Shown: positions 16,980 through 49,709 of the stretch, piece after piece
Layout of the letters: every line of letters starts with the position of its first letter
Position numbering within the stretch: the stretch's first letter is position 1
Source of the DNA: Alloascoidea africana
Lineage: Eukaryota > Ascomycota > Alloascoideomycetes > Alloascoideales > Alloascoideaceae
Reading direction: 5' to 3'
NCBI GenBank assembly: GCA_030581615.1
Contig: JAKTTT010000036.1
Span: 167,534 to 231,533 of the forward strand
DNA length: 64,000 nt
Program-made: the position numbers and the translations under genes
The notes under the pieces: generated by a model
The model's database searches: none
What the model was told of the DNA's origin: nothing
The model's input: the letters and a program-made list of their open reading frames with translations, nothing else

Positions 16980-18570
16980 ATGTCCAAGAAAAACTCAACT
17001 AATAGCAATACTCCGACTCCTGGTGCTGGAAACAATGTCGGGAAAGCCGGCAGGGGGGTGGCAACGAAAAAAGTTGCTAATGGTAATGGACACGCCAACG
17101 CAAACACCCCGACGAGGACAAATTCTCCAAGTGTACAACCACAGCCTATCCAAGACAAGATTTCTGGGCCTGAGGAATTAATAATAGGTTGTAAATGCTT
17201 GGTTAAGAAAGATGATACGTTTCGCCGTGCCGAAATTCTTTCCAAACACGAGAGGAAGGGCCGTCTAGTGTTTTATGTCCACTACCAGGAGTTCAATAAG
17301 GTAAGCAACTGATTATGTTTTTTTCATATTGTTGATTTTTGCTCTAACTGGTTTTGGGTAGCGTCTTGATGAATGGGTAGAAGCTGATCGAATCAACTAT
17401 TCGGAGCCTGTTGAGTTCCCCAAGCCTGAACCAGTTAAGAAAGCTTCTGGAGCAGCCGCGAGAGGCAAGTCCAAGAATGACAAGAAGAAAAACAGGAAGA
17501 CAGATTCGTCTAGAGCTAGTTCGGCTACGGCATCCAGTACGCCCGCTGGTACGGGAATCAATACTCCTGTGAAAGGACAGGGCAATGATATTATGGACCT
17601 GGACAATCTGAACGTCCAAGGAACAATACCTGTTGGAGAAGAGTTGTCTCGTGAGGAGGAGATCAAAAGGCTGAAGACAGGTGGGTCCATGGCCCAAAGC
17701 TCACATGAAGTTTCCAGAGTTCGTAATCTCATGAAGGTTATCCTTGGGGATCATGAAATCGAGCCCTGGTATTTTAGTCCTTATCCGGTGGAACTAACAG
17801 AGAATGATGTTATCTACATATGTGACTTTTCGCTTTCCTATTTTGGTTCGCGGAAGCAATTCGAGAGGTTTCGAGCCAAATCCACGTTAAAACATCCTCC
17901 AGGAAACGAGATATATCGAGATGAAAACGTTTCATTTTTCGAAATTGATGGCCGAAAGCAAAGAGTTTGGTGTCGAAATCTTTGTCTTCTTTCTAAACTG
18001 TTTTTGGATCATAAAACGCTGTACTATGATGTCGACCCTTTTCTTTTCTACTGCATGACCCGCAGAGATGAAATGGGCCACCACCTGGTTGGATATTTCT
18101 CAAAGGAGAAAGAATCTGCAGAAGGTTACAATGTTGCCTGTATTTTGACTCTGCCGCAATATCAGCGGCATGGATATGGGAAACTTTTGATTTCTTTCTC
18201 GTATGAGTTGTCCAAGAGAGAGGGCAAAGTGGGATCTCCGGAAAAGCCATTATCGGATTTGGGTTTGCTCAGTTACAGAGCATTTTGGGCCGAGACGATA
18301 ACAGCAATGTTGATGGAGAGTGGCAAAACAGACATTACGATTGAGGAGGTATCTTCAGCAACTGCAATGACAACAACGGATATTTTACACACTTTACAAA
18401 CGCTCAACATTTTGAAGTACTACAAAGGGCAACACATTATATGCATCACTGAAGCGGTACAGGAGAGCTACGCCAAGCAAAAGATGAAAAAGAAGAAGAG
18501 AATTGATGCTTCAAAATTGGTTTGGAAACCACCTGTTTTCACCGCTTCGCAGCTGAGATTTGGGTGGTGA
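16980..18570 (+). CDS. ESA1: Histone acetyltransferase Esa1 (MYST family, NuA4 catalytic subunit)
   Basis: Acetylates H4 and H2A tails in the NuA4 and Piccolo complexes; essential in yeast. Exons 16980-17300 and 17362-18570 encode 509 aa (S. cerevisiae 445). The N-terminus is a low-complexity Asn/Thr/Pro tail. A chromo-barrel domain follows (KCLVKKDDTFRRAEIL, VHYQEFNK|RLDEWV) and is split by the intron. A basic linker leads to the MYST domain with HPPGNEIYRDE, the catalytic Cys in YNVACILTLP, the acetyl-CoA loop QYQRHGYGKLLI and the general-base Glu in SPEKPLSDLGLL. The end KPPVFTASQLRFGW is the typical Esa1 terminus. The MYST zinc knuckle has lost its canonical Cys residues (YICDFSLSYFGSRKQFERF), as in other yeast Esa1 proteins. 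The 61-nt intron has GTAAGC, CTAAC and TAG. Confidence 0.97.
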
Positions 18571-45471: not shown

Positions 45472-46491
45472 GAGATTAGGTTATGATGACCTGGCAAGAA
45501 GCCAACTAGAACGAGTTAAGTTGAACAGCACTGGAATGCAAGCACAGGTCCCGTATAGCCTCGCTGAACAGGTCACCGAGAGATAGAGAACAAAAAAAAA
45601 CCAAAAACCAAAAAAAAATGGTACAAAAAAAAACAGCAGACTAGGACGGGTAGGTATCTCCACACTAGCACGGGGATTGTAGCGGCTGCGGAAGTGTTCA
45701 GCTCGGGCTCGGTTGTGGGAAGTTGTCACAGTTGGTTGCAACAGGTGTGAGATGATGATGACGATGGAGTTTCCGCTCAGGAGGCGAGAGCTCCCGCGTA
45801 CATCTGGGTCCGGCACGCACATCACAGCACCCTTCTGGCCTGTTGAAAAGTGAGACAAATCCAAAACCATCTGCTCAGTCCCGAATTACTTCAATTGAGT
45901 GTCATTGGGTATAGCGTTCTGTGCTTGAATTATCTGGTTAGACAGAGTCAAGATATCCAAGCGGTAATGCTATATGAACCAGTCACCAACATGACCATAG
46001 ACGAAATCCTACAACAATATGATTGGGAAGATCAATTCATTTTTAACCTGAAAAATACCCATAATCCGTGCTGACTGGGAACCAAGAATCGGTTACAGTT
46101 ATGCAAATGATCAATGATGAATTATGCCCATTATGTAACTCCAGTTTCGTGAAAAATGTACTTTGTGATTTTGTCCGGCACACACATTGAATCAGTTTTT
46201 ACAGCCTTGATATTCGCATTTGGGTTTTCTACTTTGTCGATTTTTTATACCAATTTTATATCTCAATCCACGTAACATGTCTCCAAAAACTGATAATCAC
46301 CAAATCAACCAGATAATTGGTAGACCAAAGGATGGAACTAATGGAGAAAGACCATTTTGTCGACATGAGATAATGTATCCTTTAGATAGAAGAGTTTACT
46401 TTCTTCATCATCATACAGAATTCTCAAATCATGTTGTTGCTTTTTTTAGTTGAATACCAAATTCATCAATCACATACCTATTATATCTTAA
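45472..46491. other. VPS54 upstream region up to the transposon
   Basis: About 1 kb. 45590-45635 is A-rich with several A runs. No gene-like ORF (the longest is 77 codons, AT-rich). TAA at 46489-46491 is a candidate target-site copy for the element that follows. Confidence 0.55.
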
Positions 46492-46495
46492 TATT

Positions 46496-46538
46496 CTTTC
46501 TACAACACTTTTGCGTTTTCACTTTTGCAATAACTTTT
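46496..46538 (+). repeat. Left terminal inverted repeat of the PIF/Harbinger element
   Basis: 43 bp beginning CTTTCTACAACACTTTTGCG. Its reverse complement is found at 49460-49502 with a single mismatch. Confidence 0.92.
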
Positions 46539-46701
46539 ACGTTAAAGGATTGCCGGATTCGATCACCTGCGTACCCGGTCAACTTGTTGCAAAAGTAGAT
46601 CTGGGAAGAATCCCTCCAAACACTCTTTGGACTTTGGGCTCTCGCACCCGACGGATAACTCAACTGGTCGTCACTATATTGAAGTTGATTCGATTTCTCC
46701 A

Positions 46702-47930
46702 ATGGGTAACGATGAAGAAGAAGAAGTTGTGGTGGCGGTGGCTGCCGCTGCATCAGTAAATATTTCATTGCTACAGCAATTACTGATGGATGATACTGGA
46801 ACCAGCCCACCCGTGTCCAATAATGTTTTCAGTATATGGGACATGGATGAAGATGCCATAAGGATGAATTTTCGGTTTGATCGAGCATCGATAATCCGAT
46901 TAACAACACTGCTGGAGATTCCTGAAAACGTAGCAAGGCCCGCTTATAGATACAAAGTCGGGCTGTTGAAGCAATGTGTATCCTATTGCAGTAGGTTCAA
47001 AATTAATACTTTGGTATGCAAATGGATAATTATTTCCAAATTGTAACGTCTTATATAGCAGATTGGCCTTAACCAAAAGTTGGTTTGATATAACCGATTT
47101 GTTTGGGAGGAGTGTTTCAGCTCTGTGCCATATTCTCGTTAGTGTTTTGGACCACATCTCGGCAAAGCATTTACATCTTCTTAAGATGGAAAGCCATCCG
47201 AGCTTGCTTTCTGAAGAGTCCCTTAGAGGATATGAGGCTGCGATCAAAAACAGAGGAGGAGTTGTTCGGCGTGTGGTTGCATTTTTGGATGGCACTCAAC
47301 GTCAAATATGTAGACCGTCTGTCAGCAAAGGTTCTACAGTGGGTATAAAGTAAGAACGTATTTATAACGCGTTTGCTCGTATTTTACTAATCCATTTTGT
47401 TACAGGCACATTGTAGTATCAAAATACAAGCTTTAATAACTCCAGATGGCCTTTTTCTCGATACATATGGTGTTGTAGCGGGGCCTCGTCATGACAGCAG
47501 TGCTTACAGGATGAGCGGCCTCGAAGAACGAATGAAAAAGTGCTTCAAGGTCAATGGAACACAATTCATTGCTTACGCCGATCAGGGTTATCATAGAAAC
47601 TCAGATGTCCTCCAAATACCGTATCCAGCCACCTCTGATATACCATGGCAGCGCGAGGCGAACAAGGCACAAAGTCGAGTCCGTATTGCCGTGGAAAACG
47701 CATTCAGATCAGTTCACGCAAATTGGGCCAAAATTAGCTATTATCTAAAGAATCGAATAGATCATAGCTATATTGGAAATGAGTATCTGGTTTCTGTTCT
47801 TTTGGCTAACCTGCTAAATTGTTCTAACCCCAATCAAATATCCCAAGCATTTGATGTAGTACCTCCTTCAATGGAGGATTATATCAATGATCCATTGCTC
47901 TATGTTGAGGCAGATCAAGACGAAGTTTAG
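46702..47930 (+). CDS. PIF/Harbinger DDE transposase
   Basis: Cuts and pastes the element. The first ATG (46702) and exons 46702-46994, 47062-47349 and 47417-47930 give one 364-aa frame. The acidic/Val-Ala-rich N-terminus leads to a helical region (DITDLFGRSVSALCHIL) and the DDE_Tnp_4 catalytic core. First Asp in FLDGTQRQICRP (codon 47288), second Asp in GPRHDSSAY (47493), Glu in VENAFRSV (47694). TPDGLFLDTYGVVAGPRHD and ADQGY are typical of Harbinger. The donors are GTTCAA (weak) and GTAAGA (good). For intron 2 the nearer acceptor TTACAG (47405) would keep the conserved HCSIKIQ but breaks the frame, whereas TTGTAG (47416) keeps it. The copy may thus be intact with altered splicing, or carry a one-base loss at the exon edge. 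Confidence 0.85.
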
Positions 47931-48029
47931 TTTATGCTTAATACTATATAGGGGCATATATGTAAGAGATCGGAAAGCTATTCACATTTCATACACTTTC
48001 TTCATACTTTTTCTATTGCTATGTAGGAA

Positions 48030-49020
48030 CTAAGCTATCGAATTGTTTTGCACCATACTCTGGGTCATCAACGATAATAACCTCTCCAACTTGTCATTAG
48101 ATTCGTGTACATTGAGTTCTAAACTTGTCAATTTATTGTTCGATTCCTTAACATCAGACTTTAAAGTGGTCAATTGATAGTTCGATTCCTTAACATCAGA
48201 CTCTAAAGTGGTCAATTTATCGTTCGATTCCTTAGTATCAGACTCTAAAGTGGCCAACTGTTCCTCGATTTCATCGCTATTCGTTTGCCTTCCTGTGAAA
48301 GCTTGGGCGATAGATTTCAAGGAACCACTTATCTCCGAAGAATTTTCGGCGGTTTGCTGTAGCAGCAGGTCCAGCTTAATACCTCTCCGTGAACCACGCA
48401 CCGAACGCGTAGTTCTCCCCATTTGTGAACTGCTGTCTTCCGAAGATTGAGAGTCTTCCAGTTCACTTGTAGAGTCCCAACTAGTCTCGGACAAGCTCAA
48501 TGCTTGTGATAGTGATTGGATGCGTCGTCTCTTGAGACGCGCAGAGGACGATTTACAGATTTCTCCCTCCCTGTCAAGCAGTTTTTTTTTTTTTTTTTAT
48601 CTGCTGGTCCTCTGCATCTCTTTGCCTTTGTTCCTCGATACTTTGTTTCTATAATAAAATGTTGGCATTGTATACAAAATACGCGTCATCTATTTTAGAT
48701 AAACATACATCATGTAAGATTTCTTGGAGCTTCAACTCCACTTGAGATAATCCTCCACCAAGGCCGGTCTGGGTTTGGCGACCCTTGACCTTCTCCTTCA
48801 TAGCAGCTTCTAGCTCGAAAAATCTCTTTTCAAGCGTTCTTCGCTGAGCAACATGGAATCCGGTTTTATTGTTAAACACCGAAATCGCTTCTAACCACCT
48901 GGACTCTATGGAGCCGAATTCAAGACAATATAGTTGATAATCTTGATAGAGCTCAACAAGTTCAAGATCAAGCTGCTCAGTCCAACGCACTCTACGCCTA
49001 GACTGTTCTTCTTGCGGCAT
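48030..49020 (-). CDS. Myb/SANT-like second protein of the PIF/Harbinger element (one-base frameshift in an A-run)
   Basis: In PIF/Harbinger elements a Myb/trihelix-type partner binds subterminal sites and helps the transposase enter the nucleus. Exon 1 (49020-48709, 104 codons) has a SANT-like pattern: RVRWTEQLDLELVELYQDY, RWLEAISVFNNKTG, RRTLEKRFFELEA. Its donor GTATGT and acceptor TATTATAG (48649) define a 60-nt intron. Exon 2 (48648-48030) begins KQSIEEQRQRD and then meets a run of 17 A (on the coding strand). After the run the conserved-looking frame is offset by one. That second frame continues LLDREGEICKSSS through a basic SARLKRRR, a Ser/Glu-rich part and a coiled coil with about four copies of a TLESDVKESN heptad-like unit. 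Stop at 48030. With 16 A the two parts would be one frame. Confidence 0.65.
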
Positions 49021-49459
49021 CTAAGGACAAACGTAGGCTTTATCAGTTTTTGAGAAACCAGAGAGGGTCTTGTAAGCTCACAACAACTGGCACGGCGGCG
49101 GTCACGTGTGTCAAGAATTGTCAGATTTGTCAGGGTAAGGCTTGATTTTTTGATTCAAGAAGACAAATTTGGTAATTTATGTATCCCAAATACAAAAATG
49201 TTTAGGTTCTGATATCATTATTGGCTGATTTTTAACCGTGCAGAAAGCTTAAAAGTGATGACCGGCGGGGCTTTTGACTTTTTGCTACAGACCCGGCTTT
49301 TGCAGTAAAATGGCCAGTTACTGCAAATCTACATCAAGGATTTGCATTGTGAGCGCAAAAGTTTTTTAAGTTTTTCATTAACAGCATCCCAAAGTAGTAA
49401 TATGCACTGTCCTTGCATGTGCATATGAAAGATCACGTAAGCATGGCCCGGTCACCCGC
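49021..49459. other. Right subterminal non-coding part of the transposon
   Basis: About 440 bp with repeated short motifs related to the inverted-repeat core: GGCTTTTG copies near 49270-49300, GCAAAAG near 49348-49356, and AAAAGT tracts. Likely transposase or Myb-partner binding sites, by analogy with the family. Confidence 0.5.
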
Positions 49460-49502
49460 AAAAGTTTTTGCAAAAGTGAAAACGCAAAAGTGTTGTAGAA
49501 AG
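49460..49502 (-). repeat. Right terminal inverted repeat of the PIF/Harbinger element
   Basis: Reverse complement of 46496-46538 with one mismatch (42/43). Ends ...GTTGTAGAAAG. Confidence 0.92.
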
Positions 49503-49709
49503 TCTCTATATAACATTTTGGCATATAAAAAACAGTTAAAAAATGTTTCTGTAAAAACTGTTACAAATCAAGATCTTTGGATATCAACCCTCAAAAACTC
49601 ACATTTTTATTCTTTTTTTAAACTTATTATTTGTAGACTTTTTTTCATTGTACATGGATCCCAAAAAAAAAAAAACTAATACAAAATAATCACATTGATT
49701 TTTGGGATT

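What the first reader, a model, noticed from the sequence alone, without database searches (positions are those of the whole stretch)
46492..49510. PIF/Harbinger transposon with both partner genes in a budding yeast
Terminal repeats, a DDE_Tnp_4-type transposase with all three acidic residues in recognisable blocks, and a Myb/SANT-like second gene together define an autonomous-type PIF/Harbinger element. Described yeast DNA transposons are mainly hAT, Tc1/mariner, Mutator-like and Zisupton types, so this superfamily is unexpected here and may be a new family or a transfer from filamentous fungi or another host.
Basis: partly seen in the sequence, partly recalled or inferred. Interest (0 to 1): 0.8.

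Follow-up and report, generated by a model that had tools for sequence, protein, structure and literature searches.

The report
Dying Harbinger-type jumping gene in yeast
This is a worn-out PIF/Harbinger-type DNA transposon, with its transposase gene and its Myb-like partner gene, in a budding yeast, where such elements are rarely reported; a distant relative of the partner gene elsewhere in the same genome looks as if the host has kept it as a gene of its own.

Summary
Window 46492-49507 is a 3-kb element with a 46-nt terminal inverted repeat (96%), a three-exon DDE_Tnp_4 transposase (Pfam E=1.3e-13, all three acidic residues) and, convergent with it, a two-exon gene for a Myb/SANT-like domain plus a coiled coil with a 14-residue repeat. 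Eight loci of the family lie in the same 23-Mb genome; older lineages survive as relics. The host is a budding yeast reading CTG as Leu. The window copy is dead: the transposase frame breaks twice, the partner gene once. Copy C19 has an open 373-codon transposase but no complete partner gene. dN/dS between copies (0.24; 0.08) indicates past selection on both proteins. Seven exact ACTTTTGC motifs all lie within about 155 nt of the ends: likely partner-protein binding sites. The target-site duplication could not be read, so canonical PIF/Harbinger versus a sister lineage stays open. The best overall relative is 34% identical, so recent transfer is not supported. New here: at C1:1044554-1046154 an intact full-length partner-gene homologue (367 codons) stands beside a stop-riddled transposase relic, a candidate for domestication of the partner gene alone.

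The parts
46492..49507 (.). whole element (outer limits from comparison of copies; left end eroded)
46496..46541 (+). left terminal inverted repeat, with ACTTTTGC repeats
   Evidence: motifs
49457..49502 (-). right terminal inverted repeat, with ACTTTTGC repeats; outer GAGA motif runs to 49507
   Evidence: motifs; outer motif
46702..46990 (+). transposase exon 1; frame breaks near 46960 against copy C19
46991..47058 (+). intron 1 of the transposase gene (68 nt, GTAGGT...TATAG)
   Evidence: model taken over from C19
47059..47349 (+). transposase exon 2 with first catalytic D (FLDGTQ); frame breaks near 47322 against C19 and C48
47350..47405 (+). intron 2 (56 nt, GTAAGA...TACTAAT...TTACAG)
47406..47930 (+). 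transposase exon 3 with second D (YADQGY) and E (VENAFRS), DDE_Tnp_4
47961..48038 (+). truncated relic of a probable solo LTR (TGTAAG...), nested between the two genes
48030..48648 (-). gene 2 exon 2: 14-residue coiled-coil repeat; frame breaks at an A-run at 48582-48598 against copy C5
48649..48708 (-). intron of gene 2 (GTATGT...TTATAG)
48709..49020 (-). gene 2 exon 1: Myb/SANT-like three-helix domain (104 codons)

Best explanation
An inactivated copy of an old, resident cut-and-paste transposon of the PIF/Harbinger-like (PHIS) superfamily. When the family was active, the two proteins would have acted together: the Myb-like protein binds the iterated ACTTTTGC motifs at both ends and brings in the DDE transposase, which cuts the element out at the GAGA... 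termini and reinserts it. Shown here: the anatomy, the copy family, the catalytic triad, the signature of past purifying selection on both genes, the clustering of motifs at the ends, and the present frame breaks. Inferred: which protein binds the motif, the cut-and-paste chemistry, and the loss of mobility of this copy.
For: TIR 46 nt 96% with outer motif shared by copies (9 hits versus 0 control); DDE_Tnp_4 E=1.3e-13; alignment of D, D, E; 8 loci of the family in the genome, among them an internal-deletion derivative with both ends (C67) and a copy with an open 373-codon transposase (C19); convergent Myb-like partner gene; dN 0.077/dS 0.316 for exon 3 (C36 versus C19) and dN 0.079/dS 0.992 for gene 2 exon 1 (C36 versus C5); 7 exact ACTTTTGC in the element, all within about 155 nt of an end, 0.15 expected.
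Against: The target-site duplication is unresolved: only two copies keep both ends, and no register gives a perfect 3-bp match in both. The Myb-like domain stays below Pfam's cut-off, and the single-sequence model of it is poor (pLDDT 54, three helices). With one mismatch allowed, ACTTTTGC occurs 13 times, 5 of them internal, against 3.6 expected, and the motif was picked after seeing the ends. No empty site is known; the left flank occurs once in the genome.
Confidence: 0.88

Rival explanations
1. It belongs to a PHIS sister lineage (Nuwa, Pangu or PHISTA) or a new one, rather than to canonical PIF/Harbinger.
For: No TWA duplication could be read; a 2-bp reading (TT in C67, TA in the window) fits both two-ended copies; in the 33-row tree the window and C60 stand alone as sisters. 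PHISTA makes TA duplications (PMC12730594, passages).
Against: The Myb-like partner gene is typical of PIF/Harbinger and Nuwa, not of Pangu, ISL2EU or PHISTA (PMC4482050 parts 1-2 of 4; PMC12730594 passages). The 2-bp reading was found after trying several registers.
Confidence: 0.3
2. A recent horizontal transfer from a filamentous fungus or another host.
For: Such elements are rarely reported in this group; the only species named among the transposase relatives is a basidiomycete, Tilletia indica, 33%.
Against: Best overall relative 34%; lineages at 39-45% identity (C60 and others) in the same genome; dS 0.32 and 0.99 between copies; an LTR inserted before the copies split; GC 0.413 near the window's 0.437.
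Confidence: 0.07
3. Gene 2 is a captured host gene and not the ordinary PIF partner; the intact C1 and C2 homologues are the host originals.
For: C2 is an open two-exon gene without a recognisable transposase relic in the 2 kb downstream. Gene 2, C1 and C2 each have a phase-0 intron after the three-helix domain, placed within a few residues of one another.
Against: C1 lies convergent to, and about 60 bp from, a decayed transposase, in the layout of the window element, so it looks element-derived. Two genes, one Myb/MADF-like, are the rule in PIF elements of plants and animals (PMC9710019, abstract and passages).
Confidence: 0.12
4. Contamination, misassembly or a chance resemblance.
For: The assembly has 138 contigs; runs such as the A17 in gene 2 could be sequencing errors.
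Against: The element sits between yeast genes in a 231-kb contig, and relatives lie on seven other contigs.
Confidence: 0.02

Closest known systems
PIF/Harbinger group of the PHIS superfamily (PMC4482050, parts 1-2 of 4 and passages)
   Same: DDE_Tnp_4 transposase, Myb/SANT-like second gene, TIR under 60 bp whose first base is A or G, about 3 kb
   Different: 3-bp TWA duplication not confirmed; in a budding yeast; partner protein carries a 14-residue coiled-coil repeat (no claim that others lack it)
HAR1 (Harbinger) of Cryptococcus neoformans (PMC6643885, passages)
   Same: fungal Harbinger DNA transposon in a yeast-like fungus, low copy number
   Different: HAR1 is in a basidiomycete and shown to move; the element here is in Saccharomycotina and this copy is dead. 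Sequences were not compared.
Domesticated PIF proteins: DPLG7/DPM7, ALP1/ALP2, HARBI1/NAIF1 (PMC9710019, abstract and passages)
   Same: a Myb/MADF partner gene kept open after the element died (C1 locus)
   Different: the cases seen in that paper keep the transposase alone or both genes; at C1 only the partner gene is open and the transposase is a relic
PHISTA (PMC12730594, passages)
   Same: fungal PHIS lineage; a 2-bp TA duplication is one possible reading here
   Different: PHISTA was described from rust fungi, with a third protein and no Myb/SANT domain

Membership tests
PIF/Harbinger (canonical) | DDE transposase of the DDE_Tnp_4 type | tested here: met
   Pfam E=1.3e-13 over cut-off; triad aligned
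PIF/Harbinger (canonical) | second gene with Myb/SANT domain | tested here: inconclusive
   Myb families are the only or best hits for the window, C5 and C1 copies but below cut-off; C2 none; three helices in a poor model
PIF/Harbinger (canonical) | 3-bp TWA target-site duplication | tested here: inconclusive
   C67 reads TTT/TTT or TTA/TTT by register, the window TTA/ATA or TAA/TAT; no empty site
PIF/Harbinger (canonical) | terminal inverted repeats, mostly under 60 bp, first base A or G | tested here: met
   46 nt plus outer (A)GAGA motif
PIF/Harbinger (canonical) | position in the PIF/Harbinger clade of a PHIS tree | not testable with these tools
   no named reference transposases held; tree has mostly unnamed rows
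ISL2EU | THAP domain in transposase, YqaJ nuclease as second protein | tested here: not met
   no such Pfam match among the five pieces scanned
Spy | no duplication, insertion between AAA and TTT | tested here: inconclusive
   the one clean two-ended copy, C67, does not show AAA|element|TTT; one copy only
Pangu | ANT duplication, second protein without known motif | tested here: inconclusive
   flanks vary; second protein is weakly Myb-like
PHISTA | TA duplication | tested here: inconclusive
   TT in C67 and TA in the window in one register only
Domesticated PIF partner gene (C1 locus) | open reading frame kept while the element decays | tested here: met
   367 codons without stop beside a transposase relic with at least five stops; simulation
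Domesticated PIF partner gene (C1 locus) | orthologues in synteny under purifying selection; expression | not testable with these tools
   no other yeast genomes or RNA data held

The most novel reading that the evidence does not exclude
In this yeast the Myb-like partner gene of an extinct PIF-type element at C1 was recruited as a host gene on its own, while its transposase decayed: a partner-gene-only domestication of a Harbinger element in a budding yeast, with C2 perhaps an older case.
Probability: 0.4. Interest if true: 0.7.

Novelty: new member of a known kind. Interest (0 to 1): 0.5.

Why it matters
Class II elements are described as very few in Saccharomycotina (PMC10512250, passages). 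A resident two-gene PIF-type family there would widen the known host range of the superfamily and gives a natural record of its decay: nested LTR, internal deletion, inverted duplications, frame breaks. If the C1 gene is a working host gene, the DNA-binding partner alone can be recruited, in a group where the domesticated transposases that I saw described (alpha3 and Kat1 of Kluyveromyces lactis; PMC5499181, passage) come from the MULE and hAT families.

Tried and rejected
First intron-1 model (donor GTTCAA) was wrong. C19, and by eye C60, showed that exon 1 of the window has a frame break of its own and that the donor is GTAGGT. The queries, the first row of A2 and the window row of the tree therefore carry about ten residues in the wrong frame; the conclusions do not rest on them. 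The element's end was first taken at CTACAAC, and comparison of copies moved it out to GAGA.

Spy-type insertion (TTT/AAA next to CTAC) was considered and dropped, since those bases belong to the repeat in the copies compared. Inverted ends for the C60 relic were looked for by repeat search: pairs of 14-25 nt at 75-87% turned up, none flanking the gene in a convincing way. Ends of the C1 relic: nothing above shuffles (best 17 of 20 matches; shuffles reach 15-17). A transposase relic near C2: none; one hit at E=0.047 was dropped as chance. Empty site: the left flank is found only once; the right flank and joined flanks were not searched. Rfam: no match. Window tRNAs: none. Codon-usage scores favour the annotated frame in C1 and C2 only slightly. 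The structure model of gene 2 exon 1 was too poor (pLDDT 54) to search with, so no fold search was made. The profile search of PDB sequences gave one match at E=0.31, no evidence. From the tree, P0011 and P0033 were left out as short, and P0034 was not included (31 of the 34 transposase relatives used).

Full report
What is there. The window lies in contig C36 of a 23.18-Mb, 138-contig genome. The element runs from about 46492 to 49507. Its arms 46496-46541 and 49457-49502 are 46 nt long and 96% complementary. Lining up 7 ends from 5 copies shows a shared outer motif beyond the core repeat; the 24-nt pattern GAGAYWTTSTAYARCACTTTTGCG with up to 3 mismatches is found 9 times in the genome and its reversed control 0 times. 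One of the 9, on C9, reads as coding sequence by eye and looks like chance; one, on C20, is a lone 24-nt end. The window's own left end has lost the outermost bases of the motif.

The transposase has three exons, 46702-46990, 47059-47349 and 47406-47930. Exon 3 matches DDE_Tnp_4 at E=1.3e-13, above the curated cut-off; exons 1 and 2 alone match nothing. The catalytic D, D and E blocks line up with the homologues found (12 homologues, some of them partial). Gene 2 runs the other way: exon 1 49020-48709, intron 48708-48649, exon 2 48648-48030. Its first exon is Myb-like below threshold (window E=0.08; copy C5 E=0.012); a single-sequence model shows three helices at low confidence (pLDDT 54). Its second exon holds a 14-residue repeat. 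The two genes converge.

State of this copy. The transposase frame breaks near 46960 and near 47322, and gene 2 at an A-run at 48582-48598, each judged against related copies. Copy C19 has a transposase open over 373 codons in three exons, but its gene 2 and right end are lost or rearranged. C5 keeps gene 2 up to an inverted duplication, with no transposase. C67 is an internal deletion of 0.88 kb with both ends. By alignment coverage, none of the 8 loci (C36, C19, C5, C6, C67, C131, C7, C48) carries both genes intact. Between C36 and C19, exon 3 has dN 0.077 and dS 0.316; between C36 and C5, gene 2 exon 1 has dN 0.079 and dS 0.992 (NG86). The copies therefore diverged mostly while both proteins were being selected, as expected of an element that needs both.

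A nested clock. In one search, 13 places outside the family match only the stretch around window 47956-48038. I aligned 5 of these 13 with C36 and C19. They share a repeat of about 165 bp, TGTAAG...CTAACA. Its 5-bp flanks are ATATA on both sides in C19 and C37, agree with one mismatch in C16, do not agree in C47 and C53, and are unclear in C1 (read by eye). I read it as a solo LTR. C19 holds it whole at the same place where C36 holds a truncated piece, so an LTR had entered the ancestor of these copies before they split.

Ends and mechanism. ACTTTTGC occurs 7 times exactly in the element, all within about 155 nt of an end; the rest of the window predicts 0.15. With one mismatch allowed there are 13, against 3.6 predicted, 5 of them internal. 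In the 7 ends compared, copies sit at offsets near 16, 30 and 42; the third is missing in C131_R, and C67_R has two, at 16 and 28. Shuffles of each 300-nt end reach the observed count in 0 to 3 of 500 (all). The motif was chosen after seeing the ends, so the counts are descriptive. In zebrafish Harbinger3_DR the Myb-like protein binds a subterminal 9-bp motif and is needed to bring the transposase to the nucleus (PMC9710019, passage); by analogy I infer that gene 2 binds these repeats. The duplication is unresolved: C67 reads CCCTTT|AGAG...CTCT|TTTATG, and the window does not match in the same register. A 2-bp reading (TT in C67, TA in the window) fits both but was found after trying several registers.

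Host and kin. The flanks carry yeast genes (by my own reading of the ORFs: REV3, VAS1, ESA1, CYR1, DRS1, EXO84, an EPS1-like protein). For ESA1, every species named among the 120 listed of 1547 matches is a budding yeast (Pachysolen 81%, Ogataea 79%, Sugiyamaella 79%...); the nearest of all, P0035 at 84%, is unnamed. In a tree of 17 sequences the window groups with P0035 (98/98) apart from the 15 named genera, whose own deeper forks are weakly supported. At the 8 CTG codons of ESA1 the relatives mostly have Leu (16 of 16 at five positions, 15 of 16 at two, 11 of 16 at one), so CTG is Leu here. I could not name the species.

Transposase searches gave 12 and 33 proteins. The best overall match is P0001, 34% over 86% of the query; a short one, P0033, is 37% over 39%; the only species named is Tilletia indica. 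In the tree of 33 rows the window and C60 are sisters at 100/100 with no supported close kin. C60 carries stops, and its second D reads N (YGNSGY). Further relics lie on C72, C3, C49 and C33.

A possible host gene. Searching gene 2 found two more homologues without stops, C2:694165 (25%, E=9e-5) and C1:1045756 (27%, E=1e-4). C1 is a two-exon gene of 142 and 225 codons, with a phase-0 intron within about three residues of the place in gene 2. It matches gene 2 over the N-terminal domain (BLASTP E=5e-9 for the single comparison) and over the coiled coil (score 101; highest of 1000 shuffles 82), although the tblastn did not report the coiled coil. About 60 bp downstream and convergent lies a transposase exon-3 relic with at least five stops and a frame change in about 375 nt, closest to C60 (tblastn E=7e-8 on the 3.6-kb stretch without composition adjustment; E=0.0225 in the genome search). 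With substitutions alone, 10% neutral change would leave such a frame open in 0.45% of 2000 simulations. The likeliest reading is that selection kept the partner gene after the element died. A later separate insertion, or a host origin of gene 2, is not excluded, and codon usage supports the frame only slightly. C2 has no relic in the 2 kb downstream.

Literature. Searches of the held library listed no paper whose title or listed abstract describes a PIF/Harbinger element in Saccharomycotina. PMC4999066 (passage) mentions 40-90-bp similarities to several superfamilies, Harbinger among them, at Dekkera centromeres. The survey of fungal cut-and-paste transposons (Muszewska 2017) is not held, so I cannot say that the superfamily is unreported in this group. 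The main text of PMC4482050 does not contain the word yeast; its species tables were not seen.

Noticed in passing
G000:C1:1044554-1046154 (L077, L082): Open two-exon homologue of gene 2 beside a decayed, convergent transposase relic: candidate host gene derived from a dead element.
   Followed up: partly
G000:C2 about 693088-694590 (L076): Second open two-exon homologue (three-helix domain, low-complexity middle, C-terminal coiled coil) without a recognisable transposase relic in the 2 kb downstream.
   Followed up: partly
C5, C7, C19, C72, C49 copies (L010, L014, L009): Several copies carry inverted duplications or flipped pieces of internal sequence, as if repair after cutting had gone wrong.
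   Followed up: no
window 47961-48038 and 13 places: Probable solo LTR family, about 165 bp, TG...CA, dispersed in the genome; internal retrotransposon not looked for.
   Followed up: partly
window 17593-18570 and protein P0035: The host's ESA1 groups with one unnamed protein, apart from the 15 named genera in the tree: probably a poorly sampled yeast lineage.
   Followed up: partly
window 46280-46453: Small open frame of about 58 codons from ATG just left of the element (read by eye); the stretch 46142-46491 occurs once in the genome; nature unknown.
   Followed up: no
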